A stretch of DNA of 64,000 nt from Odontesthes bonariensis (Eukaryota > Chordata > Actinopteri > Atheriniformes > Atherinopsidae), in NCBI RefSeq assembly GCF_027942865.1, contig NC_134510.1, forward strand, positions 22,933,209 to 22,997,208. Reading direction: 5' to 3'. The first letter of the stretch is position 1, and each line of letters starts with the position of its first letter. A program made the translations under genes and the position numbers. Under the pieces are notes generated by a model. The model was not told where the DNA came from. It worked only from the letters and a program-made list of their open reading frames with translations, and ran no database searches. Positions 34,515 through 54,295 of the stretch are shown in pieces.

Positions 34515-34818
34515 GGGCAAAGCAGAGCAAGATCCAAGCAAAGCAGCAAGATCCAAGCAGAACAGGATCCGATCCAAGAACAGCAAACGAGATCCAAGCA
34601 AGGCAGAGCAAGATCCAAGCAAGCAGAACAGGATCCAAGCAAGCAGAGCAACATCCAAGCAAGCAGAGCAACATCCGATCCAAGACAGCAAAACGAGAGC
34701 CAAGCAAGCAGAACAAGATCCAAGCAAAGCACCATCCAAGCAAAGCAGCGCAAGATCCGATCCAAGAACAGCAAAACGAGATCCAAGCAAAGCAAAGCAA
34801 CATCCAAGCAAGCAGAGC
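34515..34818. repeat. minisatellite with ~20-bp unit
   Basis: Array of variants of 'caagcaagcagagcaacatc' with interspersed 'gatccgatccaagaacagca' spacers, giving a partial higher-order pattern. The repeat keeps frames open on both strands (a Lys/Gln/Ser-rich frame on plus, Leu/Cys-rich frames on minus). These are compositional artefacts, not genes. Confidence 0.88.
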
Positions 34819-38642: not shown

Positions 38643-38870
38643 TGTAGCGTTGACACGTTATTAATTAATATTTACCTCGAAAATAGTAGGGCACCACCTC
38701 TTTTATTTTAATTTGTTACGTTACAGTCCAAAGAGGAAGACTGTTTAAAATCTTGCAATCCTAGTATGTTATTTTAAGAATCAGTCTCATTCTGAGTCGT
38801 GCGTCCTATTTGGATTGGTAACCGGCTTTAGTAACTGTCTGTGACACTCTTAAGTGGCTTAACATAAACA

Positions 38871-38876
38871 TTTATT
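38871..38876 (-). terminator. candidate retroviral poly(A) signal in 3' LTR
   Basis: AATAAA on the minus strand, downstream of the candidate TATA box. A second AATAAA is at 38,707-38,702. Confidence 0.45.
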
Positions 38877-39186
38877 CAACATTGCACAGGTATATAGGGG
38901 TATAAACAATTGATAAAGAGACAGAAATTAGAATTATTGGGGAAACAAAAAAAAGGGTAATAGGGAAGAAAGGAGCAGGCCATTAACAGGGTTACCTATC
39001 AAAAATGTGACTAAATCTGGTTCATAACACGGATATTGTGCCAACAGTCTTCTGCCCGCGTAGGTCTGTTCATTCGTCGCTTCCAGAGAAAGTTTTCACT
39101 TTATCCACGGTTTCAAAAGATCTCAAACCAGCACCTTACTTTGTCGTAGAGTATCGTGGTTATTTACAAGGTGAGCGTCAGTCCTT

Positions 39187-39300
39187 GGAGACCACGTTTC
39201 CTTGGTTACCAGCGGCTGGGCGTCGTTGTTGGAGACCACGTTTCCTTGGTTACCAGCGGCTGGGCGTCGTTGTTGGAGACCACGTTTCCTTGGTGACCGG
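39187..39300. repeat. 44-bp tandem repeat in 3' LTR
   Basis: Units start at 39,187, 39,231 and 39,275 with 'ggagaccacgtttccttggt'. The third unit diverges after about 20 bp. The same array is in the other LTR at 52,710-52,823. Confidence 0.92.
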
Positions 39301-39377
39301 CTGGGTGACGTTTAGTCGGCTGTTCTTCTTGGGCCGGGCGGTGTGATTTAGCAAACACTCGCGTGTATCGGACCAGA

Positions 39378-39384
39378 CTTTATA
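39378..39384 (-). promoter_or_regulatory. candidate LTR TATA box
   Basis: TATAAAG on the minus strand. The matching, functional position in the 5' LTR is 52,901-52,907. Chosen on sequence alone. Confidence 0.4.
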
Positions 39385-40573
39385 AAAAAAAGGAAGTCTA
39401 AAAAAAATGGGAATTAATAGTTACGGAGTAAAATAGAGAGAGGACAGAAGACTTGAGCTAAGAGCAAGCGATAAGACAAGAGAGAGGTCAAAAATTGTAA
39501 GCATAAGCTTAGGGGACAAAGGGAGTGGTCAAGGCTTGGAGGACCACAGGGAGGTCCCAGAGTTGCGGATTTTGAGAGTAAGCAGTAAGAGCGAGCTAAG
39601 AGGGGGAAGATGGTAGATATGAGAGAGAGAATCTCTGGTGCGCTCGGGTTTTAAACTCGAGGTCACATGTCAGCTTTCGTCCAATCAGAGTTCAGCTGGC
39701 TTTTGACCCAAGGGAAAAAGGGGGGTTGACCATGCTGAATTCATGAGACAAAAAGGGGGGATTCTGCTCCTTTCTTATACCGTATTTAACCCATATGACA
39801 GTGATTTTAGACAATATAGTGTTCTTAACAGACAATAATGTCACATAAAAGCAGGCATAAACACAAATATGAGCATGAAACACTTATTAGCATACAATAC
39901 TTCATATTATCATGACAAAAATGGTAATGACAACTTTGCTTGCTGTTAATTTAGAATGATCTGCAGCTGTTTGAGTAATACCTGTGGAATTAAACCCTAT
40001 TAGGTTATGCATTGCACATAATGAGAACATTAAACATCCGTAGTTGAAATTGTCCATGGTTGTTTAGGCTGACATATTGAAAAGTGTCCGTTATCCATGT
40101 CCTTTGGGGGGCACTGTGGCTCCACGAGAGGGATCCCTTTTAAATCCAATTTTCATAATTTGCTAATTGAAGAAGGTACAAGAATGGCGAATGTTTCAAA
40201 ATGATCTGTAGGTTTGTCCAGTAATGATTTTCACACTTTCAGTCTACGGAAAGCGAGGTTTATAGTGGAATTTTCACTCTCTGAAAATAGGGAAGTGTGG
40301 CATTCCTTCAGGTTGGACCAGCAGGACATTTGAGGCTACATCTGCTCTCTTATCAGGAGGTGTCCTACATAATTTATTATTCGTAGCTGGTCTGGGGGGG
40401 AGAAGACTCGGAAACAAAGAACCCCATTTAGTTGGTCTCACATCTGGCTCCGTTATCTCCTTTGAGCTGATCCGTTGAGAGGGTCGTAAAGAGGGTACGT
40501 TTCTTGATGTCAAGAAAGGTTGGATCTTTATGTAAACATCTCTGTGCTCTGTCTTTCCTGAGAGCACGCTACA

Positions 40574-40585
40574 TATCCCCCACTT
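40574..40585 (-). other. polypurine tract
   Basis: Minus strand AAGTGGGGG followed by ATA directly abuts the 3' LTR start. This is the usual position and composition of the plus-strand primer for reverse transcription. Confidence 0.75.
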
Positions 40586-40908
40586 GATTTGGAGGTGTCC
40601 TGGGGAGATCTCGGAATCACGGAGGAGTAATCCCAGTGGTCTCAGGTCCAAGAGGCTGAGGTGTTCTCTGAGGTGGTTGTGTTGGCTTTTCCTATCTTGT
40701 AGTACTATTTTACTGTAAGACTTATGGAATTAGAAAAACATATAAAAAGATATAACGAATTTAACTACGGTTTCTTAAGGGACTATAGTCGTAGCCTGAA
40801 ACTAATGTCTAACCTATCTTCTAGCTAATTCTTTATAAAAGGGTAAATGGACTAAGTAACAAAGAAAAATCAAAAAGGGGCAGAGGTGACAGAAAAGTTG
40901 GCTTAGAG

Positions 40909-41760
40909 TTATACTTCATTCGCTAGTTCGTGGACTGCGGGGGAGTATATGACTCGGGGTTCTTCCGATTCTGTCTCCTCATCAAAAGTCACTAGATCGG
41001 TGGTGTTTTTGTCCTGATCTGGCTTCTTACGTTTGTTACGTCTCGTGGTCCATTTGAGTAGGTTAATTTGGCCCTGGAGGGCGTTAGCGCGTCGAGAATA
41101 TAGGTACGCGATTCCGAAGGTGAGGAGGTAGCCTAGGGCAACCATAGTCGCGGTTACTGTGTCGGGGCCTGACCATGAGTAGGATATAGTTGGTCGGGGA
41201 GGTTTGTTGCTGGAGGTTATTTCTTTCAGCACGTTCTCTATGGGACTAACGTCAATGGTTTTAAAACCTTCAAATTGGAGTTGAGTGACCGTGTCTGCCT
41301 CAAGCTCCAGGGATTGCTTTGAGTAGAAATCGGAGATTTCTATTTCCCCGTCGTATTGGTCAGGATTAAGGTGGTAAAGGGCCAGGTCTCCTATGTGAAG
41401 GATTGCGCCTTCAGGAACTGTGACCCACAATGTGCGGTTTGGTAGTTCCATTTTGGTAGACGTGTCGTGTTGATCGTAACTAATAGTGGCGGTCTTCGCT
41501 GGAGTGTTAACCAACCAGCGACTTCCCACAGTTTCTGCTTGGGTGTTAGTTACTTGGTATTTTGGTGTGAGAGTTGTTTGGCACTGGGAGTCTTCGGTGA
41601 GAAGTTTAAGTCCACAGAGGCCCCCAGTGTCGTCTCTAACGAATGGTTTGCTGGGGCAGAGATAATGAATGTCTCTGGTAAGGGTGCACATTTTTAAATT
41701 GGGCGCGAGGTAGAGATCTGGAGAACTATCGTGGTACGCTACCACTGTTGGTGTGTGCAC
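40909..41760 (-). CDS. env: env C-terminal segment after the stop
   Basis: 283 open codons directly after the TAA, beginning with GTG rather than ATG, so it is unlikely to be translated by itself. It holds several cysteines (near 24, 35, 49, 60 of the segment), an NRT glycosylation site near 108, a helical stretch near 160-183, a hydrophobic membrane segment near 203-221 with following RR, and a cytoplasmic tail with a lysine/arginine cluster and a YSPAV motif. Confidence 0.75.
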   Translation of the reverse strand: MHTPTVVAYHDSSPDLYLAPNLKMCTLTRDIHYLCPSKPFVRDDTGGLCGLKLLTEDSQCQTTLTPKYQVTNTQAETVGSRWLVNTPAKTATISYDQHDTSTKMELPNRTLWVTVPEGAILHIGDLALYHLNPDQYDGEIEISDFYSKQSLELEADTVTQLQFEGFKTIDVSPIENVLKEITSSNKPPRPTISYSWSGPDTVTATMVALGYLLTFGIAYLYSRRANALQGQINLLKWTTRRNKRKKPDQDKNTTDLVTFDEETESEEPRVIYSPAVHELANEV

Positions 41761-42726
41761 TTAAACGTGGGTTTCACCTTTCCAGATTCCTACGTTGATG
41801 ACGTCTTTTAGTCGGTAGATGTTGTCGAGGGTAACTATGGGAAGATTAATGAGGAAGGCTATTTCGCGGCCTTCGGGATTTACGTGAATGGGGACTGCGC
41901 TGCCTAGTGTATAAGCTAGATGTGCTTGCAAGGGGTTAACAATTTCTCTAGTGGCCGTGGACAGAATGTCCTGTACTACGGCTAGCGACACTAGGTACGG
42001 AGGGATTTTTCCCATAGCTAGAGTATCAACGGAGGAGCTAACATCTCTTATCAGATCAGACATGAGCATAGTTACCAGCTGTGTGTGAGCATAATCAACC
42101 TTTAAAACTCCCAGCAGTGTGTCTTCTGCTGCGACTGTCTTCATCAGGGTTTCACTATGGGAGTTCAAAACCAAGACCGTGCCTTCCACAGTTTTGGTCA
42201 CCGTGCTGAGCTGTCCTCTCTGCAAGTCTAGTTGCTGTTGGATGCCCGGGATTTCACCCTGCAACTCACCCATATGACGCTTTATCGCGGCAATGTTTAC
42301 GGCATTCACGGCTGACGCCCCCAAACTGAATAGGGAGCCGACGGCGGATGCGGCTGCCAGTAGTCCCCCAATGAAGCGTTTCTCCCTTCTGTTCGCCCCA
42401 CTCAGTTCTGATTGAGTGATGGTGAACTTCTGGAGTTGTTGCAACATATGGGTGATGTCTACCTCCGCATGAGTGATGACTTCTCTCTTCCACCGAGCGC
42501 CGGCCCACGAAGTCAGTTTGGCGGAGCTAGGCACGTTCCTCGTGCACAGCACACTAGGACTGAACCGGACATACACCTTCTGGGTGTGTAGCCGGCAGTT
42601 GGTGATCAGGAGTCCGGGTTGTTCCATTAGAACAATTCCGGAGTCTGGTCCGGGTTCAACGATCTCAGTCCAAGTGGGAATAGTTGCCAGTCCCATCGTC
42701 GCAAGTATGAGCCAGAGTGTCATCAT
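41761..42726 (-). CDS. env: env N-terminal segment ending at in-frame stop
   Basis: 321 codons from tandem ATGs at 42,726 and 42,723. It holds a signal peptide (about residues 1-19), RREKR at 113-117, a fusion-peptide-like Gly/Ala stretch at 118-140 and a long helix-prone region to about 200. The first ATG lies 2 nt after a good splice acceptor, so expression from a subgenomic spliced RNA is likely. Without the downstream part it lacks a membrane anchor. Confidence 0.8.
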   Translation of the reverse strand: MMTLWLILATMGLATIPTWTEIVEPGPDSGIVLMEQPGLLITNCRLHTQKVYVRFSPSVLCTRNVPSSAKLTSWAGARWKREVITHAEVDITHMLQQLQKFTITQSELSGANRREKRFIGGLLAAASAVGSLFSLGASAVNAVNIAAIKRHMGELQGEIPGIQQQLDLQRGQLSTVTKTVEGTVLVLNSHSETLMKTVAAEDTLLGVLKVDYAHTQLVTMLMSDLIRDVSSSVDTLAMGKIPPYLVSLAVVQDILSTATREIVNPLQAHLAYTLGSAVPIHVNPEGREIAFLINLPIVTLDNIYRLKDVINVGIWKGETHV

Positions 42727-42727
42727 C

Positions 42728-42745
42728 CTGGTGAAAAACAGTGAT
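42728..42745 (-). promoter_or_regulatory. env splice acceptor
   Basis: The minus strand reads CACTGTTTTTCACCAG|G then ATG: a pyrimidine-rich tract and AG (42,729-42,728) placed right before the env start. The matching donor in the leader was not identified. Confidence 0.65.
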
Positions 42746-43012
42746 GGATATTAGGGCTTATTTCAAATTGATACACTTTTGGTTGGACGGAGGTTAGAGT
42801 TGGCTAGTTCACCCCCACTTGCAGTTAGTGTGTTAGTAGCTTTTATTAGACAGGCAGTCGGATCGGGAAGACGGACTTTAGTTTGAACTATTCTGGTTTT
42901 GCCTATTTTGATTTTAGTTCCTTGCTAATAATATTGTTTAGGAGGGAGCTCTGTGTTCTTTTCTTTTATCGTTTTGTTAAGGCTTTTGCTCCCCCCCTTG
43001 TGGATCTCGGTT

Positions 43013-46000
43013 TTATGGGTTTGCTGAGACCTGATTGTCCTCAGCGGGTCCCCTAAAGCTTTTATGTGGTCTAATTTGGTTTCTGTGGACCCATTTGGAC
43101 TTGGCTTCTTTCTGTCCTTGGCTGATTTTTATCTGATACACCACTGGTGACAGTTTTTCGGTGATCAGGTGGGGTCCTGTCCATCGAGGAAGGAACTTTT
43201 TGGCCAGCTTTCCAACCTTGTGACTCGTCTGTTCACCGGTTTTGGTGAAGTTGTAGTACCAGACCTTGTCCCCCACTTGGAGTTCCTCCTGTGAGGCTTT
43301 TTGGTCATAATAGCTCTTTCTTCCCTCGACCGATTTTTCCAGGTGTTTCTGAGCGAATGCAAAGGTTACCTGTAGGTGTCTGCTGAGGTCCTTCATGTAC
43401 TGGTGAGTGGTGTACGCTGTTGCTACACTGGCTTCACCTGGTTGGTAGAGCAGATGCAGTGGCATTGTCATCTGTCTGCCTGTCATCATTTCAAACGGGG
43501 AGATTCCCGTTGCTTCGTGTGGTGTTGCTCTGATGGCCATTAAGACCAACGGCAATTTTACATCCCAATCTCGTTGGTTGGATGCAACGTACTTCTTGAG
43601 TATGTTCACCACAGTTCGGTTGGCTCGCTCTACTTGACCTGAGGCTCGCGGGTGATAACTGATGTGAAAGTTTGCTTTCACACCCAGAGCTTGCCACAAC
43701 TGTTGCATGACTTCTGCCGTGAAGTGTGTTCCTCTGTCTGATTTGACACGACTCGGAAGGCCGAATCTTGAGAACACATGGTTCATGAGCAGGTAGGCGG
43801 TAGTTTCAGCTGTATCGTTTGCAGCTGGTAGGCATTCTACCCATTTGGTGAATGCACATGTAACCGTGAGGAAGTATTTGTTGCCTCTGGTTGATTTGGT
43901 GAGAGGTCCCACCCAGTCAATTTGGAGGTCTGACCATGGGAATGAGATGCCTCTCCTCTGCAACGGAGCTCGGTGTATCGGGTTTGTCGGCTGAAACTGG
44001 CAACACACAAGGCATCCTTTGATGTAGTCGGCTACATCTTTTCTCATTTTTGGCCAGTATGCCACTTGTTTTAACGCGCTGTATGTTGCTTTGACACCTT
44101 TGTGTCCAGCCGCGGGAAGGTCGTGTGCGTGCACGAGCATCACCCCCCTTTGGTTTCGAGGGACCACGAACGCAGGTGAAGAGAGTGCGTCGGAAACATG
44201 AACTAAGACACCTTTGACCAACCGCAGGGCTGATCGAGTGGCAAAGAGTTTCCTTAAATCAGGGATGTTATTGAGGTCAGACTCAGAGGGTGTGTTTGAG
44301 CCGTCAGACACGAACAACACCATTTTATTGATGGCAGGGTCGAGCGATTGAAGGGTGACCAGGTCAGTGTCGGTGAACGCTGGTTCCACTGACACTGATC
44401 CATCGTTAGATGTCTGGGCGGGAGGGTTTGTTTTGGAACGCGTCACCACACAGATCTGTGGTTCGGAGGAGTCCGCGGTGGCTGCGGTTAGCCACGAGGG
44501 ATCCAGTGACCAGGGGATGCCATGCATCGCTCCCTGTTTTGCCAAGGAATCAGTTAGATCGTTCAGTTCTTTGTCTTGCCCCGGTACACGTGAGTGGCCT
44601 CTGACCTTTTTCCAGTAGATCTGCATGTTGTTGGACTCAATGGCGTGGTTACATGCCAGGAACAATTCTTTATTTTTCACAGGTTTTCTGCTGGAAGTCA
44701 GGAAACCATTGCGTTTCCACGTGGCAAGGTGGCAAGAGAAACTGAGACGGGCGTAGTTTGAATCAGTACAAATCAATAAGTCTTTCACACCTTTTTCTGC
44801 AGCGAGTTGTACCGTGATCAGGACACCTGCCACTTCTGCGTATTGGGACGACTGTGAACCAAGCTGGAAGCTTTGAGGTTCATAGGGGTTGTTCTGGAGC
44901 CAAACGACGCCTGCACCTGCTCGTGTAACCGTGTCATGATGAAAAGAGCACCCATCTACATACGCAGTAGTCATGTTTTTACACACGTTTTCATCGTAGT
45001 AGTGATGGTGGGGGTTGGTTACAGGTGAGGGTTTATCTGTAATTGCGCAGAGTGGAGGTGTATCTGCAGTGCAGTTCTGACATGCAGCAAGATCGGTGCC
45101 GAGAGGGCTCTTTTTGTTCTGCGCGTAGCGGACTTCTAAGTCGAAACTTTGCAGAGCCATTAGCCATGAGGCCACACGGGCATTTGTTACAACTCCATCC
45201 CTTATACGTTGGCTGTTAAGGAACGTGGTAGGTTGGTGTTGTGTTTCTACAATGACCTTTTGGCCTCCAAGGTAGTTGGAGAAATGTTTAACTGCCCAAA
45301 CTGTGGCAAGCAGAGCTTTTTCACAGTCAGAATATTTCAGCTCGGGTATAGCTAGCGTTTTACTGGCGTACGCCACTACTCTCTTATCCTGGTCGTATTT
45401 CTGATACAGACCAGCGCTTAAACAGTGAGTTGAGAAGCCCACTTCGAGGTGGAATGGTTTGTCGCAGTTAGGGTAGTTTAAACATGGTGCTGTGCACAGT
45501 TTTTCTTTTAAGGTGGACATGGCCTTTTGTTGTGGCCCAGCCCAGATAAAAGGTGTGTCCTTTTTAAGTAGTTCAGTTAGAGGTTTTGCTATGTCGGCAT
45601 AGCTCTCAATGAACTGTCGAGAGTAGTTGCAGACTCCTAAGAAGCTGCGGAGTTCAGAGACATTTGAGGGAACTTTGATGTTACTGATGCCCTGGATGCG
45701 GTTAACTTGTGGCTCGACACCACTTGGTCCTACTAGGAGACCGACGTAGTCTACTTTGGTTTTGCACCACTGACATTTTGAGAGTGATATTTTTGCACCC
45801 GCAGTGGTGAGTTGACCCAGGACATGGTCGATTTCCTGAATGTGTGCATCCAGGTTGGGGCTACGGAGAAGGATGTCATCGACGTAGATGAGGTTACCTC
45901 GTTCGCCGGCATCAGGACATGCTTTGTTCAGAAATATGTTGAATTCAGCAGGTGAGTTGGCGTAGCCAAAAGGACACCTGGTGAATGTATATTGACGGTT

Positions 46001-49000
46001 AGCGAACGTGAATGCCAACTTGTGTTGGTCCTCAGCGTGTACTGGAATGGTCCAGAAACCCGACGCCACGTCTAGAGTGGAGAAGTATTTGGCATTTTTA
46101 ACGCGAGGAAGTTCTTGTTCAAGCTGAGTCATTGGCCATCTCGAGAGAGGGACCTGTTGGTTGAGTTTTCGATAGTCGATCGTGAGTCTCCATTTTCCAT
46201 TGGGTTTCACGACCGGCCAGAGCGGTGCCGAGTAAGTGCTGTTACAAGGCCGAATGATCCCGTTTTTCAACAGGTCGTCTATTATTTCTTGTATAGGCTC
46301 CTGTGATGCTAGAGGAATCTTATACTGACGCACAAAAGTTGGCGGTGCGTCTGGTGGAGTAGGAATGCGCATTGAGTGGATTGTGGTTAACCCACAATCC
46401 GAAGAATCAAGTGAGAAAAAATCCTGATATTTGAGAAGGGTTTGGCGTAGCTTGTCGCGTTCCTCGTCATTAACGAGAGCGTTAGCTTGCGTTACCACTT
46501 CTTCGATTCGATCAGCAACATTAGGGGATGGCCCTGTTGTTACTTTTTCCTGTGCGTCGGGAGAGTCTGGGGTTGATGTAACCGCCAAGACGTCAACCGT
46601 GTGAAGTGTCATTTGTTCATCATGACTAAGATCAATGCGACTGACTGAGTTCTGGTCGAGAGTCACGACCGAAAAGAGTGCGATCGCCCTTGAAGGCTTT
46701 GTGTAGACAACGTGAGTTGTCTGATGTTTTGGGTAGAGTGGAGTTGGGATTTGTCCCAGTATTGGGATGCCCAGCTCAAAGTCATGGAAGTCAGTACTGA
46801 TAAGCCAGCCCAGTGGCGTGCCTTTTGGGATCAGTATGGCTTCCTCGCCGATGTTGTTGATCAGCAAGAATGTGGTCCTAGAATTTAGGCCCAAAAGAGG
46901 AGTTGCTTCCAGGGACAGTCCAAGTTCGAAGAACAATGGCGAAGGTTGAAACAGAGCTTGTGAGTGGTTAAGATTCTGTCCTGGTTGCATGCATATTTGG
47001 AGAGGGACATTCGCCGTGCGTGCTGGTATTGTGGCATGTTGGAAGTTAGCTACTTGACATACCTCTGGAATTGTCTGTCCTGACTTCAGGTTGTCTGCGT
47101 CAGGCAGATAAGAAGAATCACGCACGGGTGTTAGTGACCACAGAATGTTATTTACTGTGTCAATTTGGACACCTAGTCTCACCAGTATATCGCCTCCTAC
47201 GTACACTGAGTGTGGAAGGTCGGGAATAACCAGAAAAGTGTGAACCAGCATTCTGTTATTCCACTTTACTGTGAGGGCACAAACACCCATGGCAGTGAGT
47301 GTTGTGGTTGGTGTAGGATCTGATGGGAAACGGAATGTCTTTTTCACCATCCGGAGATTGGCGTTTTCTCGTGCCAATGACTCATACAGATCCTTACTGA
47401 TTGCGGATTTATCAGCCCATAAAGCTATAATCACATCATCTATCTGCGACTTTTGCAGTTCAAGACCTCCGAGCACCTGTGGACAGTACTCGTCCTGCGT
47501 GGCTGACGGTTGTAATGCACACAGGAGAGTGTCTCGCTGTGTCGCGAGCTGCGTCACCAGGTTGTCAGGGTCGGCCTGAGCGGCTGGACTGCTGTGGACA
47601 ACCTCATCGTGTGTTACGGTTTCGGACGGCTCGAGTAAAGTTATCTGTTGGACAGAGTTATGCTTTTCACTTTCAAGGACATAGCAGCTAAAATCTTCAT
47701 TGTACGGAAAAGTAATCGTCAGAGGTTCTCGCACTTGTGCCCACACTTTCAATCGTTTGAAATCGAGTAAAGGCTCGAAACGGTTCAGAAGATCTTTTCC
47801 GACAAGCAAAGGAATGGACTCAAGTGATGACACATACACGGGATGAATCAGAGTCATTGGTCCGATTGACAGTTGTATCAGAGATACTGCTGACAGCGTA
47901 GTGTTATTAGAGGCGTACGGGCGCACCTCCAGAGAGCAAGGTTGGAGTTTTAACTCTTTATTGCCGTGGTTTGCTGCCTTACGAAGTCTGTTAAAAAGAG
48001 ATAGAGACATTAAAGTTATATCCGCGGCGGTGTCAAGGAGAGCTTCATGTCTCAGCACATCTTCCAAGGTTAGTGAGATGTAAAACTTGCGTGCGACTCC
48101 CTTTTCAGAGAGGTTGCAAAGAAATTGGTGTACAGGTGGTTCAACTTGTATCAGAGAGGCATCCTGGTCAGAGGAGATCTCTTTTTGATCCAGCTGTACA
48201 ACCAAGACTGCGCTAGGTGGGAGAGGATCTTTTGCCTCTTCTTCTGTGCTGTTCACAGGAGTTTGTGACTCTGTTTGAGCCTGTTGTGGGTCCAGCTCAG
48301 ATTCTGGAGTTGGCTCGGCTACTCGTTCTGGCTGTAAAATGGAATCAGCTGGCAGGGCCAGGTTCTGTGTCACAGTGGTTATAGACAGAAGATCAGACTT
48401 TTTGTTAACTTTCTTTTCTTTCATTTCTTGCAACAAACGTTTAATATTGTCTATCTCATCCTGGCTGAGACCAAAGGCTTCTTTTTCCTTTTCAGATCTC
48501 ATGCCTGGAGAGTCTTTGTTGCTCCTTTTGTGTGAATCATTCGATTCCTGTTGGGATAATTTGGACCATTCCGTGCGTGGATGTGTGTCCCGAGGCCTAT
48601 TTTTATAGTCACTCTGGTTCTCCCGAGCTGGGTATTTGGGAAACCGGTTTGGGAAGAACTTTCCTCTGTGAGGGTTAAAAGGAGGTTCGTTGTGTTCTGC
48701 ACGTGAGTGAGATCGCTCTTTACTGGGCCAGTGAGGTTTCGAGTAGCCGTCTGTCGGATGAGACGGTTGAGTCTGTGATGTCTTGTGACTCTCACTAGAC
48801 CGCTGTGGTCGGGTGTCGTGACCAGGTGCCTTACCCCTTTGGGCTCCTTCGAGCTCCATAGGTGGGTGTTCGGCGTTCAGCGTCAGAACAGTGTTATGCT
48901 CTGGCTGTTTAGCTTGTCTGTGTTTCTGGAAACCTAAAGTGGCCCACTCACGGAGCTGCACAATTGTGGCTGTTCGCGGATTAGCCATAACCCCCAAGTG

Positions 49001-50401
49001 GTGACTAGTAACGGGATGGAGATTTTGGATGAAGAGCGTTTTGAAATTTATATCTTCCTCCATTCCCTTGTCGTTGCGTGAGCCAAAATAAGCTTTGAGG
49101 AGACGGTAATAGTACTGCTGAGGCAGCTCACTACGTCCCTGTTTAACCATCATGGCGGTACTTAGACCAGACTGAGACAGCTCATCTGAAAATTCCCTCT
49201 CCATCGTTTGACAGAGAAGTGCATAATCATTTTGGATGGAATCAAGCTGACGTTCGATGAATCTACTTACTTCACGGCTGGACGTGATTTTAATCAAGTA
49301 GATTTTGTCCGTAATGGATGCGTTTGGAAATCGACGCAAATAGAAGTCAATATCATTTAAGTAAGCTCGGGTGTCGTGCGGCCCCCCAGGAGTGGGTTCG
49401 AACCTTGGCACGTTGCGAGCGATTTTGTCTAATTCTCGGTCAGAAGGTCCCAACGGTGTATGGTTTCCCAGAGCAAGGACCGACTGATCCAGTCTGGTTG
49501 GTTCTGGGGACTCACCGTGGGCTCTGAAAGGATTTGGGGTAGCTGGCCCTGTTGGGGGAAAGAACGACTCCCCCTGGGCTCCCTTATAGCTAAAACGGCC
49601 TTCCTTTTCTGGTTGAGAGGTATCATGCATTTTCAGTTTGCGTTCAGCCTCCAAGGACTGACGTAAATCTCTTTTTGCATTTATCAACTCTCCTGTTAGG
49701 CGTTCGTTTTGCTGATACGCTTCATTGATTTTGTCTTTAGCTTCGCCGAGGTGTTCCTGCAAAAGCTGTATCTGTTTTTGTTTAGCACTGAGATGCGTCT
49801 CATAGGATGCGACTTCAGTGTTCAAATCCTGCACTGTCTGCAGGGCATCGTGGAGAGGTTGTTGCGAGTCCTTATGGGCTTTATCAACCTCTTCCAGTTT
49901 AGCTTGGTTAGCCAGCAACTCTTGTTGGCACTGCTGGAGCGATTCCCCAAGCTCCCCGTTTATCCCTTTTAGTTGATTCATATCTCTGTCTGATTGTTCA
50001 ACCTGGGTTGTTAATTTCTCTATTTGGTCAGCAGCCTGGCTTGCTGTCCTTTCAGAGACTTCTAATTTATGTTGGAGGAATTTCTTTTCCTCCTGTAATT
50101 GCGTTATCGTTTGCGACCGAGTTTTGAGTTTTTCAGCGGCTTGCTCCACCACCTTATGTGCATGTTTGAATCGCGCGGAGAAGACGACAGCTAAGCTCCC
50201 CAATAACTTTGTTAAAGTTTTGTCTTTGGGCGTCTTCGCTTCCACTCCTGCAATAAGTTCTGACACTATTGCCCCGAGCTCGTTGGGGTCAGTGCCTGTT
50301 ATTTTGTTGACATAACCTGGAATTAGCTCTTCAGTCAAATCCATCAGGGTGTTTTCCATTGCTTCGAATGGATCGTCCTGACTGGACGTGTCAGAAGTCA
50401 T
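43013..50401 (-). CDS. gag-pol: Gag-Pol polyprotein, single uninterrupted frame
   Basis: 2,462 residues with no stop or frameshift between Gag and Pol. Order: coiled coil (85-258), capsid-like region (325-500), basic Arg/Pro/Gln-rich linker without a CCHC knuckle (500-670), retropepsin with LLDTAAD (788-794) and GKDLL (868-872), a second retropepsin-like domain lacking DTG (985-1092), a beta-rich region (1112-1205), reverse transcriptase with LDV (1443-1445) and YVDD (1506-1509), a degenerate RNase H/tether (1645-1730), an intact RNase H (D1816, E1856, D1880, H1936, D1951), and an integrase with H2093, H2100, C2130, C2133, then D2162, D2222, E2258 and a C-terminal GPF/Y-like module near 2409. 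All core catalytic residues are present, so the enzyme could be active. The ATG at 50,401 is the first in the frame and precedes the coiled coil. Confidence 0.95.
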   Translation of the reverse strand: MTSDTSSQDDPFEAMENTLMDLTEELIPGYVNKITGTDPNELGAIVSELIAGVEAKTPKDKTLTKLLGSLAVVFSARFKHAHKVVEQAAEKLKTRSQTITQLQEEKKFLQHKLEVSERTASQAADQIEKLTTQVEQSDRDMNQLKGINGELGESLQQCQQELLANQAKLEEVDKAHKDSQQPLHDALQTVQDLNTEVASYETHLSAKQKQIQLLQEHLGEAKDKINEAYQQNERLTGELINAKRDLRQSLEAERKLKMHDTSQPEKEGRFSYKGAQGESFFPPTGPATPNPFRAHGESPEPTRLDQSVLALGNHTPLGPSDRELDKIARNVPRFEPTPGGPHDTRAYLNDIDFYLRRFPNASITDKIYLIKITSSREVSRFIERQLDSIQNDYALLCQTMEREFSDELSQSGLSTAMMVKQGRSELPQQYYYRLLKAYFGSRNDKGMEEDINFKTLFIQNLHPVTSHHLGVMANPRTATIVQLREWATLGFQKHRQAKQPEHNTVLTLNAEHPPMELEGAQRGKAPGHDTRPQRSSESHKTSQTQPSHPTDGYSKPHWPSKERSHSRAEHNEPPFNPHRGKFFPNRFPKYPARENQSDYKNRPRDTHPRTEWSKLSQQESNDSHKRSNKDSPGMRSEKEKEAFGLSQDEIDNIKRLLQEMKEKKVNKKSDLLSITTVTQNLALPADSILQPERVAEPTPESELDPQQAQTESQTPVNSTEEEAKDPLPPSAVLVVQLDQKEISSDQDASLIQVEPPVHQFLCNLSEKGVARKFYISLTLEDVLRHEALLDTAADITLMSLSLFNRLRKAANHGNKELKLQPCSLEVRPYASNNTTLSAVSLIQLSIGPMTLIHPVYVSSLESIPLLVGKDLLNRFEPLLDFKRLKVWAQVREPLTITFPYNEDFSCYVLESEKHNSVQQITLLEPSETVTHDEVVHSSPAAQADPDNLVTQLATQRDTLLCALQPSATQDEYCPQVLGGLELQKSQIDDVIIALWADKSAISKDLYESLARENANLRMVKKTFRFPSDPTPTTTLTAMGVCALTVKWNNRMLVHTFLVIPDLPHSVYVGGDILVRLGVQIDTVNNILWSLTPVRDSSYLPDADNLKSGQTIPEVCQVANFQHATIPARTANVPLQICMQPGQNLNHSQALFQPSPLFFELGLSLEATPLLGLNSRTTFLLINNIGEEAILIPKGTPLGWLISTDFHDFELGIPILGQIPTPLYPKHQTTHVVYTKPSRAIALFSVVTLDQNSVSRIDLSHDEQMTLHTVDVLAVTSTPDSPDAQEKVTTGPSPNVADRIEEVVTQANALVNDEERDKLRQTLLKYQDFFSLDSSDCGLTTIHSMRIPTPPDAPPTFVRQYKIPLASQEPIQEIIDDLLKNGIIRPCNSTYSAPLWPVVKPNGKWRLTIDYRKLNQQVPLSRWPMTQLEQELPRVKNAKYFSTLDVASGFWTIPVHAEDQHKLAFTFANRQYTFTRCPFGYANSPAEFNIFLNKACPDAGERGNLIYVDDILLRSPNLDAHIQEIDHVLGQLTTAGAKISLSKCQWCKTKVDYVGLLVGPSGVEPQVNRIQGISNIKVPSNVSELRSFLGVCNYSRQFIESYADIAKPLTELLKKDTPFIWAGPQQKAMSTLKEKLCTAPCLNYPNCDKPFHLEVGFSTHCLSAGLYQKYDQDKRVVAYASKTLAIPELKYSDCEKALLATVWAVKHFSNYLGGQKVIVETQHQPTTFLNSQRIRDGVVTNARVASWLMALQSFDLEVRYAQNKKSPLGTDLAACQNCTADTPPLCAITDKPSPVTNPHHHYYDENVCKNMTTAYVDGCSFHHDTVTRAGAGVVWLQNNPYEPQSFQLGSQSSQYAEVAGVLITVQLAAEKGVKDLLICTDSNYARLSFSCHLATWKRNGFLTSSRKPVKNKELFLACNHAIESNNMQIYWKKVRGHSRVPGQDKELNDLTDSLAKQGAMHGIPWSLDPSWLTAATADSSEPQICVVTRSKTNPPAQTSNDGSVSVEPAFTDTDLVTLQSLDPAINKMVLFVSDGSNTPSESDLNNIPDLRKLFATRSALRLVKGVLVHVSDALSSPAFVVPRNQRGVMLVHAHDLPAAGHKGVKATYSALKQVAYWPKMRKDVADYIKGCLVCCQFQPTNPIHRAPLQRRGISFPWSDLQIDWVGPLTKSTRGNKYFLTVTCAFTKWVECLPAANDTAETTAYLLMNHVFSRFGLPSRVKSDRGTHFTAEVMQQLWQALGVKANFHISYHPRASGQVERANRTVVNILKKYVASNQRDWDVKLPLVLMAIRATPHEATGISPFEMMTGRQMTMPLHLLYQPGEASVATAYTTHQYMKDLSRHLQVTFAFAQKHLEKSVEGRKSYYDQKASQEELQVGDKVWYYNFTKTGEQTSHKVGKLAKKFLPRWTGPHLITEKLSPVVYQIKISQGQKEAKSKWVHRNQIRPHKSFRGPAEDNQVSANP
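43112..44149 (-). other. integrase domain of Gag-Pol
   Basis: Residues about 2085-2430. The zinc-binding H2093-H2100-C2130-C2133 set is followed by the DDE triad D2162, D2222, E2258 (SDRGTHFTAE and GQVERANRT contexts). The downstream WTGPHLITEKLSP resembles the GPY/F module of Ty3/Gypsy and some retroviruses. Confidence 0.93.
44522..44977 (-). other. second, intact RNase H domain
   Basis: Residues about 1809-1960. AYVDG (D1816), YAEVAG (E1856), CTDSNYA (D1880) and the HSRVPG...DLTDSLAK stretch (H1936, D1951) retain the catalytic set. This copy sits downstream of a degenerate one, as in retroviruses. Confidence 0.88.
45212..45469 (-). other. degenerate first RNase H / tether
   Basis: Residues about 1645-1730. 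The usual LETDAS and TDH motifs of Ty3-type RNase H read LEVGFS and TQH here, so two catalytic aspartates are missing while the fold-defining YASKTL and YSDCEKALLA remain. Confidence 0.8.
45722..46375 (-). other. reverse transcriptase domain
   Basis: Residues about 1343-1560: WRLTIDYRKLN, FSTLDVASGFW, FTRCPFGYANSPAEF and LIYVDDILL. YVDD, rather than the FADD-type box common in Ty3/Gypsy, is retrovirus-like. Confidence 0.95.
46787..47068 (-). other. beta-rich, dUTPase-like region
   Basis: Residues about 1112-1205, with ATIPARTANVPLQI, and IGEEAILIPKGTPLGWL. Similar beta-rich segments follow the protease in many vertebrate Ty3/Gypsy Pol proteins; a dUTPase-like fold is inferred by resemblance only. 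Confidence 0.45.
47126..47449 (-). other. second retropepsin-like domain, catalytic triad lost
   Basis: Residues about 985-1092. The C-terminal half, TFLVIPDLPHSVYVGGDIL..LGVQID, reads as a retropepsin end. The position of DTGA holds ALWA (993-996) in IIALWADKSAIS, so the catalytic aspartate is absent. Confidence 0.65.
47732..48079 (-). other. aspartic protease (retropepsin) domain
   Basis: Residues about 775-890. HEALLDTAADITLMS holds the active-site D790-T-A (DTA in place of DTG); IPLLVGKDLLNRFEPLLDF is the usual C-terminal block. Confidence 0.85.
48902..49429 (-). other. capsid-like region of Gag
   Basis: Residues about 325-500. VPRFEPTPGGPHDTRAYLND, then helix-rich sequence, resembles the capsid core of Ty3/Gypsy-type Gag. 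No major homology region was confirmed. Confidence 0.6.
49628..50149 (-). other. long N-terminal Gag coiled coil
   Basis: Residues about 85-258 are rich in Glu, Gln, Lys and Leu with heptad-like spacing and few prolines, typical of a long coiled coil. Confidence 0.8.
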
Positions 50402-52165
50402 GTTGATTTGTCGAGAAAAGTTTTGTTAATCTATTTGTTTAGGCGTAACCGTGGTAAGCAGTTAGGCAAGTTATAGACTAAGTTTAGCGTGTCTGGAAGA
50501 AGGGAAGGAAAGTAAGAGAAAGAAAAAGAGAGAAAGGAAAAAAAAAAGAAATATTCAAAAAAAAAAATTCTTTAAATTTAAAATGAATAAAATATAAAAA
50601 AAAATTAAAAATAAAAAAAAATTAATTAATGATCAGAAAAAATTAAAGTTTATCGCTTAAAATTATTTAATTCCAAATTGCTTTTGAAATTAAACTTAAA
50701 ACAAAATTAAATAACAACAAGATGGAAATAATCAAACAAAAGAAAATTCAGAAAGAAGTATTCCTTAATAAAATTTATCTTACTTGATTAAGCCAAATTA
50801 TTGATAAGTTCTTTCCTTCTTCCAAGTGTCGTTCCTTTTCTAATGATGTTAATTTTGGGGTTGCTGATTGGGGTGTCGCGATTTAGGAGTTGTGGATATA
50901 ATCCACCGTTTTAGGTTGACTCTCTTTTAACCTTAAAAATCAGTTACTGTTGAGTTTTCTGATTTTAAATTTCCTATTTATTTAAGAATCGTTTTTCTCT
51001 TAAACCCTTAAACAAGTTATGCAAACAGTCATTGTTAGTACAGGAATTAGTTGTGAACCACGTGATTGCTTTTCAATTCAATCACTTCACCACAAGTTAC
51101 AATGGCGCTGGTCAGATTTGTTAGTCAAACACCATTTCCCAGAATTCCTTCACTTTGTTGTAATTAACCAAGCTACCAGCAGATGACGCTGAGGCTCGTT
51201 CTTGCGTTATTTGCAGCGGACTTCCAGGGGAAGAGTGAGAAAGTGCTGACGTCAGATGTTGACGACTTTGGCACCTCCCACTCAGGAAGTGTCAGTGCTG
51301 TGTGGCTCTCAGCCCACAGCAAATTTTTAGCTTAGCAGACTCACGCCAAGCTTTTAAACAACATTCATGTCACAAGCAAAGAGAAACACGGCGGTTTCTA
51401 ACACAGCTTTTATCAACAGCTTTGCAGAAGAGGCAGCATTTGCGAGACGTGGCAGTCTCCAACTTTCCACCTTAAGCTTTTAAGGGCTTCCAACACGTCA
51501 GCGCTCCTGCCGACGTGCTGACTCAATTGGGCTCGTGCTTCTACGAACACCAAGTTAAAACAGACTTGCCTTTAGGCACTTCAACTCTTCAAAATTGACT
51601 ATAACTACCCTCTCTTCGGGAAGTGATAATACACACGCCGTATAGACGTTACTTTTCGGTCACGGGAAGCTTCGCCGTGCCGCCTCTAATCTCCTGGCTG
51701 TTTGTAAACAAACCAGCTGCTGGCTATGTAGCTACACTAGCTTCAGCACGGAGTCCTGAGTTCAGCAGATGATCACCGGAATCTCGCGGATAATTATCTC
51801 TGTTTCTCAGAGTGGTTATATCAATGTTGGATACTCGCAACCATTAATCCCCACTTGGCCATATATAATTGAGCGTTTTTTTTTTTAACAGCTCTTGCAT
51901 GCAAAATTACTTCAGGAGGAAGCACACTCAGGCAGCGCTGACGTGTTCCGTTTCTGTGTTTTTGTAATACTTTCTTACTACAAAAACAATTCAAACAACA
52001 AGTTTATGCGTCCATAAAGTTTGTTATTCGGCTCTATATCTTTGCTTTCGTTAACTCTTAACTGCAGGAAACAAACAGTTTGTAGAACAATGCTCACACA
52101 CACAGGCAGTTTTGCTAAGCGCGGCTACTTCACAAATCGCCTCGCACGGACGGCACCAAAATATA
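50402..52165 (-). other. retroelement 5' leader
   Basis: 1,764-bp untranslated leader, long for a retrovirus. Next to gag it is very A/T-rich (about 50,510-50,780); farther up it is mixed sequence. It should hold the primer-binding site, packaging signal and splice donor. I see no gene in it. Confidence 0.8.
52141..52158 (-). other. candidate primer-binding site
   Basis: The minus strand reads TGGTGCCGTCCGTGCGAG, 7 nt after the 5' LTR end. The first nine bases equal the tRNA-His primer site as I remember it; the next nine do not. The tRNA is therefore unresolved. Confidence 0.5.
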
Positions 52166-54096
52166 TGTAGCGTTGACACGTTATTAATTAATATTTACCT
52201 CGAAAATAGTAGGGCACCACCTCTTTTATTTTAATTTGTTACGTTACAGTCCAAAGAGGAAGACTGTTTAAAATCTTGCAATCCTAGTATGTTATTTTAA
52301 GAATCAGTCTCATTCTGAGTCGTGCGTCCTATTTGGATTGGTAACCGGCTTTAGTAACTGTCTGTGACACTCTTAAGTGGCTTAACATAAACATTTATTC
52401 AACATTGCACAGGTATATAGGGGTATAAACAATTGATAAAGAGACAGAAATTAGAATTATTGGGGAAACAAAAAAAAGGGTAATAGGGAAGAAAGGAGCA
52501 GGCCATTAACAGGGTTACCTATCAAAAATGTGACTAAATCTGGTTCATAACACGGATATTGTGCCAACAGTCTTCTGCCCGCGTAGGTCTGTTCATTCGT
52601 CGCTTCCAGAGAAAGTTTTCACTTTATCCACGGTTTCAAAAGATCTCAAACCAGCACCTTACTTTGTCGTAGAGTATCGTGGTTATTTACAAGGTGAGCG
52701 TCAGTCCTTGGAGACCACGTTTCCTTGGTTACCAGCGGCTGGGCGTCGTTGTTGGAGACCACGTTTCCTTGGTTACCAGCGGCTGGGCGTCGTTGTTGGA
52801 GACCACGTTTCCTTGGTGACCGGCTGGGTGACGTTTAGTCGGCTGTTCTTCTTGGGCCGGGCGGTGTGATTTAGCAAACACTCGCGTGTATCGGACCAGA
52901 CTTTATAAAAAAAAGGAAGTCTAAAAAAAATGGGAATTAATAGTTACGGAGTAAAATAGAGAGAGGACAGAAGACTTGAGCTAAGAGCAAGCGATAAGAC
53001 AAGAGAGAGGTCAAAAATTGTAAGCATAAGCTTAGGGGACAAAGGGAGTGGTCAAGGCTTGGAGGACCACAGGGAGGTCCCAGAGTTGCGGATTTTGAGA
53101 GTAAGCAGTAAGAGCGAGCTAAGAGGGGGAAGATGGTAGATATGAGAGAGAGAATCTCTGGTGCGCTCGGGTTTTAAACTCGAGGTCACATGTCAGCTTT
53201 CGTCCAATCAGAGTTCAGCTGGCTTTTGACCCAAGGGAAAAAGGGGGGTTGACCATGCTGAATTCATGAGACAAAAAGGGGGGATTCTGCTCCTTTCTTA
53301 TACCGTATTTAACCCATATGACAGTGATTTTAGACAATATAGTGTTCTTAACAGACAATAATGTCACATAAAAGCAGGCATAAACACAAATATGAGCATG
53401 AAACACTTATTAGCATACAATACTTCATATTATCATGACAAAAATGGTAATGACAACTTTGCTTGCTGTTAATTTAGAATGATCTGCAGCTGTTTGAGTA
53501 ATACCTGTGGAATTAAACCCTATTAGGTTATGCATTGCACATAATGAGAACATTAAACATCCGTAGTTGAAATTGTCCATGGTTGTTTAGGCTGACATAT
53601 TGAAAAGTGTCCGTTATCCATGTCCTTTGGGGGGCACTGTGGCTCCACGAGAGGGATCCCTTTTAAATCCAATTTTCATAATTTGCTAATTGAAGAAGGT
53701 ACAAGAATGGCGAATGTTTCAAAATGATCTGTAGGTTTGTCCAGTAATGATTTTCACACTTTCAGTCTACGGAAAGCGAGGTTTATAGTGGAATTTTCAC
53801 TCTCTGAAAATAGGGAAGTGTGGCATTCCTTCAGGTTGGACCAGCAGGACATTTGAGGCTACATCTGCTCTCTTATCAGGAGGTGTCCTACATAATTTAT
53901 TATTCGTAGCTGGTCTGGGGGGGAGAAGACTCGGAAACAAAGAACCCCATTTAGTTGGTCTCACATCTGGCTCCGTTATCTCCTTTGAGCTGATCCGTTG
54001 AGAGGGTCGTAAAGAGGGTACGTTTCTTGATGTCAAGAAAGGTTGGATCTTTATGTAAACATCTCTGTGCTCTGTCTTTCCTGAGAGCACGCTACA
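52166..54096 (-). repeat. 5' LTR (1,931 bp)
   Basis: Sequence matches the other LTR at constant offset with no indel. It would drive transcription leftward; candidate TATAAAG at 52,907-52,901. Contains the same 44-bp tandem repeat. Confidence 0.95.
52710..52823. repeat. 44-bp tandem repeat in 5' LTR
   Basis: Three units as in the other LTR. If the TATA call is right, they lie downstream of the transcription start. Confidence 0.92.
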
Positions 54097-54100
54097 ACAG
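54097..54100. repeat. target-site duplication, right copy (ACAG)
   Basis: Directly follows the CGCTACA end of the right LTR and matches the left copy. Confidence 0.85.
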
Positions 54101-54295
54101 TTTGATGACACAAACAGAAAAGAAAACATGGTCTAGCAATAATGCATCATGATTAGTCTCAATTTTCCCACAAATTAATGCACATATATGATAAAGCTGT
54201 CGTTTATGTCTACAGGGCATGAAAATTCACACTTTAAGAACAAGACCTTGTGCTGACAAGGTCATTTTGCTTTGCTTTAGTGATAGGTCATCTGT

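What the first reader, a model, noticed from the sequence alone, without database searches (positions are those of the whole stretch)
40909..42726. Retroviral env with an F-protein layout, cut by a single stop
Seen: furin-type RREKR only about 117 residues from the start, an immediate Gly/Ala-rich fusion peptide, then a long cysteine-containing part with one membrane anchor near its end. Known: gamma- and betaretroviral Env have a large SU before the cleavage site, whereas paramyxovirus and baculovirus F proteins have a short F2 and long F1. Inference: this lineage took its Env from, or shares it with, an F-like class I fusion protein.
Basis: partly seen in the sequence, partly recalled or inferred. 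Interest (0 to 1): 0.82.

Follow-up and report, generated by a model that had tools for sequence, protein, structure and literature searches.

The report
Fish retrovirus envelope resembling paramyxovirus F
A recently inserted retrovirus-like element, most probably in a fish genome, carries an envelope gene whose protein is built like the fusion protein of paramyxoviruses; this copy is interrupted by one stop codon, and the kind of element (lokiretrovirus) is already described.

The parts
52166..54096 (-). 5' LTR (1931 bp)
   Evidence: identical to 3' LTR, 0 mismatches over 1931 bp at offset 13523
38643..40573 (-). 3' LTR (1931 bp), TG...CA ends, element flanked by ACAG on both sides
43013..50401 (-). 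single unbroken gag-pol ORF, 2462 aa
   Evidence: domains
47798..48073 (-). retropepsin-like protease (DTAAD)
   Evidence: Asp_protease_2 E 0.0052, under its cut-off; among 17 aligned rows gag-asp_proteas in 9, best 3.8e-6
45737..46207 (-). reverse transcriptase
   Evidence: RVT_1 6.8e-28; best solved match 7kse, 173.5 bits (recalled to be a foamy virus)
45092..45544 (-). first RNase H-like domain (tether)
   Evidence: RT_RNaseH_2 1.3e-19; six solved chains at 6.5e-5 to 4.6e-4, MLV-type RT and Ty3
44528..44974 (-). second, RNase H1-type RNase H
   Evidence: RNase_H 1.5e-19; Ribonuclease H1 6.8e-15
43649..44164 (-). integrase zinc-binding and core
   Evidence: Integrase_H2C2 1.5e-17, rve 8.9e-13
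41761..42726 (-). env piece 1: F2-like part, cleavage site, fusion peptide, first heptad repeat; ends in TAA at 41763..41761
42376..42390 (-). RREKR cleavage site
42307..42375 (-). Gly/Ala-rich hydrophobic fusion-peptide-like stretch
42193..42297 (-). heptad repeat (HRA-like)
   Evidence: 0 of 1000 shuffles at width 35
40909..41760 (-). env piece 2: rest of F1-like part, anchor and tail
41581..41688 (-). cluster of four cysteines present in 33 of 33 aligned rows
41101..41157 (-). single membrane-anchor-like segment

Best explanation
This is the env gene of a young endogenous lokiretrovirus (a dual-RNase-H LTR element of vertebrates) and encodes an F-type class I membrane-fusion protein. Shown by computation: F-like layout, profile similarity of many relatives to Mononegavirales F, F-like predicted fold of the closest full-length relative, and one stop codon in this copy. 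Inferred: in an unbroken copy the precursor is cut by a furin-type protease after RREKR into a short F2 and a long F1, trimerises, inserts the freed hydrophobic N terminus of F1 into the target membrane and refolds to fuse membranes; because no obvious attachment-protein gene was seen in the element, receptor binding would be done by the same protein. This copy should yield only a truncated, unanchored product, so the element would move inside the cell or depend on Env from other copies.
Against: Window piece 1 itself reaches Fusion_gly only at E 0.17 and piece 2 matches no family; the closest full-length relative, P0057, whose model was used, has no Pfam match at E 0.1, and 9 of the 34 rows have no Fusion_gly match. 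The 7 relatives scanned apart fall just under Pfam's cut-off. The A2 profile found no F chain in the PDB and the A1 profile only at E 0.36. Foldseek TM-scores by query length are low (0.23-0.35) and rmsd large; the fusion-peptide and part of the heptad region are modelled with pLDDT under 50. Viral-model matches extend to other class I proteins (filovirus, chuvirus, torovirus, herpesvirus). No pre-anchor heptad above chance. No tree against named lokiretrovirus sequences was made.
Confidence: 0.91

Rival explanations
1. A vertebrate errantivirus (Metaviridae) with a baculovirus-F/errantivirus-type Env.
For: Single gag-pol ORF, Ty3 RT is a strong match (157.4 bits), baculovirus F among fold matches.
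Against: A second RNase H1-type domain follows the Ty3-type one; the best solved RT match is 7kse (173.5 bits; recalled to be foamy virus); the Env relatives that carry a source name are from fish taken, from recall, to be teleosts; no baculovirus-F family among the 16 families listed at E 0.1 for 34 rows.
Confidence: 0.05
2. A canonical retroviral SU/TM Env that only looks F-like because SU is short.
For: It lies in the env position of a dual-RNase-H provirus; class I fusion proteins share heptad and furin features.
Against: No CX6CC in either piece, and in 0 of 32 relatives; no retroviral Env Pfam family among the 16 listed at E 0.1 for 34 rows, whereas Fusion_gly matches 25; fold matches begin with F proteins.
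Confidence: 0.02
3. F-type Env is not a capture from a negative-strand virus but the ancestral Env of deep retroviral lineages, shared by lokiretroviruses, foamy viruses and perhaps epsilonretroviruses. (A different history for the same protein, so compatible with the best explanation.)
Confidence: 0.3

Closest known systems
Lokiretroviruses (lokiortervirus; Wang and Han 2021, as described in PMC9040795), incl. zebrafish BHIKHARI families (PMC10996621)
   Same: dual RNase H, gag-pol-env with LTRs, Env with similarity to Mononegavirales fusion glycoproteins, fish relatives
   Different: nothing that sets it apart was shown; this copy has one stop in env; gag-pol is one frame and pol has a possible second protease-like domain whose occurrence in named lokiretroviruses was not checked
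Paramyxovirus / pneumovirus fusion glycoprotein F0 (Pfam PF00523)
   Same: short F2, furin-type site, hydrophobic F1 N terminus, first heptad repeat, colinear profile match of relatives, predicted fold
   Different: 6-15% identity in structural alignments, short or absent second heptad, carried by a retroelement without an obvious separate attachment protein; fewer cysteines (recalled)
Foamy virus Env (PDB 8rm0)
   Same: fold over 320 aligned residues, env of a reverse-transcribing virus
   Different: longer chain (696 residues modelled) with a receptor-binding part (recalled); no sequence-profile match found here
Errantivirus Env / baculovirus F
   Same: F-like layout, fold matches to baculovirus F
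   Different: element has the second RNase H; no baculovirus-F family match at the threshold used

Membership tests
Lokiretrovirus | dual RNase H (degenerate tether plus new RNase H) | tested here: met
   RT_RNaseH_2 then RNase_H; RNase H1-type 6.8e-15; tether weak matches to MLV-type and Ty3
Lokiretrovirus | Env with detectable similarity to Mononegavirales fusion glycoproteins | tested here: met
   25 of 34 rows Fusion_gly, best 1e-8; fold matches. Against: window piece 1 alone E 0.17, P0057 none
Lokiretrovirus | LTR-gag-pol-env-LTR | tested here: met
Lokiretrovirus | vertebrate host | tested here: inconclusive
   host of the window not named; Env relatives with a source name are fish (taxonomy recalled); own-genome search not answered
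Lokiretrovirus | RT groups with Loki-Odin, beside canonical retroviruses | tested here: inconclusive
   only a ranking against solved chains: 7kse 173.5, 7o0h 158, Ty3 157.4, MLV-type 118.6 bits, 60 of 205 shown; no tree made
Canonical retroviral Env (SU/TM) | CX6CC motif in TM | tested here: not met
   absent from both pieces and from 32 of 32 relatives
Canonical retroviral Env (SU/TM) | large SU before the cleavage site | tested here: not met
   site ends at residue 117; 106-162 in the 32 relatives, the higher values from longer N termini
Paramyxovirus F (PF00523) | Pfam gathering score | tested here: inconclusive
   7 of 7 relatives scanned apart at 24.4-28.8 bits against a cut-off of 29.8; best of 34 rows 1e-8, its bits not shown; precomputed label on 25 of 103
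Paramyxovirus F (PF00523) | second heptad repeat before the anchor | tested here: inconclusive
   109 of 1000 shuffles reach the score at width 14
Errantivirus (Metaviridae) | single Ty3-type RNase H, no second RNase H | tested here: not met
   second RNase H present
Foamy virus Env | shared fold of the fusion module | tested here: inconclusive

The most novel reading that the evidence does not exclude
F-type Env is the ancestral envelope of the deepest retroviral lineages: the lokiretroviral Env, foamy-virus Env and perhaps epsilonretroviral Env descend from one F-like protein present before the split, so negative-strand viruses and retroviruses exchanged it once, early, and the familiar SU/TM Env with CX6CC came later by replacement.
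Probability: 0.27. Interest if true: 0.65.

Novelty: new member of a known kind. Interest (0 to 1): 0.32.

Why it matters
It is a complete, very young member of what by its features are the lokiretroviruses, a group placed beside the root of retroviruses, with an otherwise open env frame and many uninterrupted relatives in fish. Such copies give the diverse alignments needed to ask whether retroviruses captured an F protein from negative-strand viruses or started with one, a question sharpened by the foamy-virus Env structures of 2024.

Tried and rejected
Sequence search of the two env pieces against solved structures: nothing meaningful (12 chains, best a tRNA deaminase at E 0.23; 2 chains, best E 0.57). 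Profile A2 against solved structures: one short helical peptide at E 3.3. Scans of viral contigs with the RT piece and with the Env alignment: no relative confirmed (5 and 76 pattern matches, none by tblastn). Structure prediction of the two protease-like stretches: pLDDT 31.6, unusable, not searched further. No tRNA gene and no Rfam match in the window. Attachment-protein gene: no ORF of 60 aa or more lies wholly between the 5' LTR and gag; the coding-strand ORFs of 80 aa or more elsewhere in the element either overlap an LTR (40274-40651, 53797-54129) or lie in other frames within env and gag-pol (42266-42508, 48499-48795); none was tested as an attachment protein. Wang and Han 2021 itself was not in the listing and was seen only as described in PMC9040795 (abstract and passages). 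The foamy-virus fusion-protein paper PMC11468914 is not held; its title was seen in reference lists and its finding in passages of PMC12390576. Other papers: PMC12583693 passages and section 9; PMC12440569 abstract and passages; PMC10996621, PMC11521997, PMC11089739 and PMC12456133 passages; PMC13064090 reference-list passage only. PMC10508981 was seen only in the listing.

Full report
WHAT IS THERE. The finding lies on the minus strand inside a complete LTR element of 15,454 bp, window 38643-54096. The two LTRs are 1931 bp long and identical, have TG...CA ends and are flanked by ACAG on both sides. Zero differences in 1931 bp means a very recent insertion (with substitution rates recalled, not looked up, as about 5e-9 to 1e-8 per site and year, probably under about 0.2 million years). 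Seven bases inside the 5' LTR edge comes TGGTGCCG, a plausible primer-binding site, and a GTGGGGGA purine tract ends two bases from the 3' LTR (sequence; reading of function inferred). Gag-pol is one unbroken ORF of 2462 aa, 50401..43013.

THE ENV GENE. It is 42726..40909, cut by one TAA at 41763..41761 into pieces of 321 and 283 residues in one frame. RREKR ends at residue 117 and is followed directly by a 23-residue Gly/Ala-rich hydrophobic stretch; then a heptad repeat (2 of 1000 shuffles reach its score at width 28, 0 of 1000 at width 35), four cysteines in piece 2, and one anchor-like segment with a tail of 63 residues. The combination of cleavage site and adjacent hydrophobic stretch appeared in 27 of 20,000 shuffles of piece 1. 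The pre-anchor heptad is not above chance (109 of 1000 at width 14). Piece 1 has no N-glycosylation sequon and piece 2 two, one of them in the predicted tail.

RELATIVES. Piece 1 found 25 proteins at E 0.01 or better; the species named in that list are, by recall of their taxonomy, teleosts. A relative from Leuciscus (P0006, which lacks a short internal stretch) found 103, again with fish names only. Both searches scored only the 7993 and 7997 candidates that share most words. Of the 120 proteins held at that point, 117 matched piece 1, 103 matched piece 2 and 100 matched both. The closest full-length relative is P0057 (76% and 67% identity to the two pieces). I aligned 32 natural proteins with the two pieces as A2; in these the cleavage motif R-x-K-R-F is present in 32 and CX6CC in 0; five cysteine columns are conserved, one in 31 of 33 rows and four in 33 of 33. 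Uninterrupted copies therefore exist; the stop is not shared by these 32, so it is a lesion of this copy or of a close group of copies.

PROFILE EVIDENCE. Window piece 1 alone matches Pfam Fusion_gly (paramyxovirus and pneumovirus F0) at E 0.17, below threshold, but across the cleavage site and fusion peptide; piece 2 matches nothing. In A1, 4 of 17 rows match it, best 0.00047. Among 34 rows of A2, 25 match Fusion_gly at E 0.1 or better, best 1e-8; the next family, Pox_A6, matches 9 with best 0.018; no retroviral Env or baculovirus F family is among the 16 listed. P0057 itself has no match there. Seven relatives, chosen from those with a precomputed Fusion_gly label, match colinearly over about 260-300 residues, 5.3e-7 to 1.1e-5, 24.4-28.8 bits against a cut-off of 29.8. 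Of the 103 relatives, 25 bear that label. Against: the A1 profile's best solved chain is F0 but at E 0.36, and the A2 profile finds none.

WHAT ELEMENT. Pol contains RT (RVT_1 6.8e-28), a Ty3/retrovirus-type RNase H-like domain, a second RNase H, and integrase. The second RNase H is RNase H1-like (6.8e-15); the first weakly matches the same place in MLV-type RT and in Ty3. The RT's best solved match is 7kse (173.5 bits, recalled to be a foamy virus), then 7o0h (158, likewise), Ty3 (157.4) and MLV-type (118.6). A dual RNase H plus an Env similar to Mononegavirales fusion glycoproteins in a vertebrate LTR element is how lokiretroviruses are described (PMC9040795, abstract and passages); zebrafish BHIKHARI elements are placed in that clade (PMC10996621, passages). 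I therefore file it as a lokiretrovirus by features, without a tree.

HOW IT WORKS (inferred). By analogy with F proteins: signal peptide, furin-type cleavage after RREKR, short F2 and long F1, trimer, insertion of the F1 N terminus, refolding. No obvious attachment-protein gene was seen (see Tried and rejected for the ORFs that remain), so attachment would be by the same protein or absent. This copy would make a truncated product without anchor.

NOVELTY. What stays open is the direction: PMC9040795 suggests that the lokiretrovirus ancestor might have acquired Env from negative-strand viruses and lists four scenarios (passages); foamy Env structures (passages of PMC12390576) and a virus-wide structure survey (PMC12583693 section 9) show F-type fusion modules in other reverse-transcribing viruses. 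The fold match here to foamy Env fits either history. The word lokiretrovirus is in 6 papers of the held library (5 listed); in the passages I saw of four of them none compares loki Env with foamy Env by structure. I make no wider claim.

Noticed in passing
window 47440-47150 (minus), with 48073-47798: A second retropepsin-like stretch about 200 residues after the protease; profiles of the two stretches align colinearly over 86 columns (hhalign P 0.0019 and 0.0029, but probability only 11-14%; controls against the stretch between them P 0.63 and 0.24). The aligned columns begin just after the catalytic Asp of the first; by eye the second has no Asp there. A possible degenerate tandem protease; the AlphaFold2 model was unusable.
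   Followed up: partly
window 39185-39298 and 52708-52821: A 44-bp unit repeated 2.6 times inside each LTR.
   Followed up: no
window 50402-52165: Long stretch (about 1.76 kb) between the 5' LTR and gag with no ORF of 60 aa or more lying in it.
   Followed up: no
window 34517-34818: Degenerate 20-bp tandem repeat, 14.6 copies, which produces several overlapping ORFs on both strands.
   Followed up: no
A2 alignment: Five conserved cysteine columns in the Env family, one in the F2-like part (31 of 33 rows) and four in F1 (33 of 33), an odd number; the window copy has a sixth at residue 61 of piece 1, in a column where fewer than half of the rows have it.
   Followed up: no
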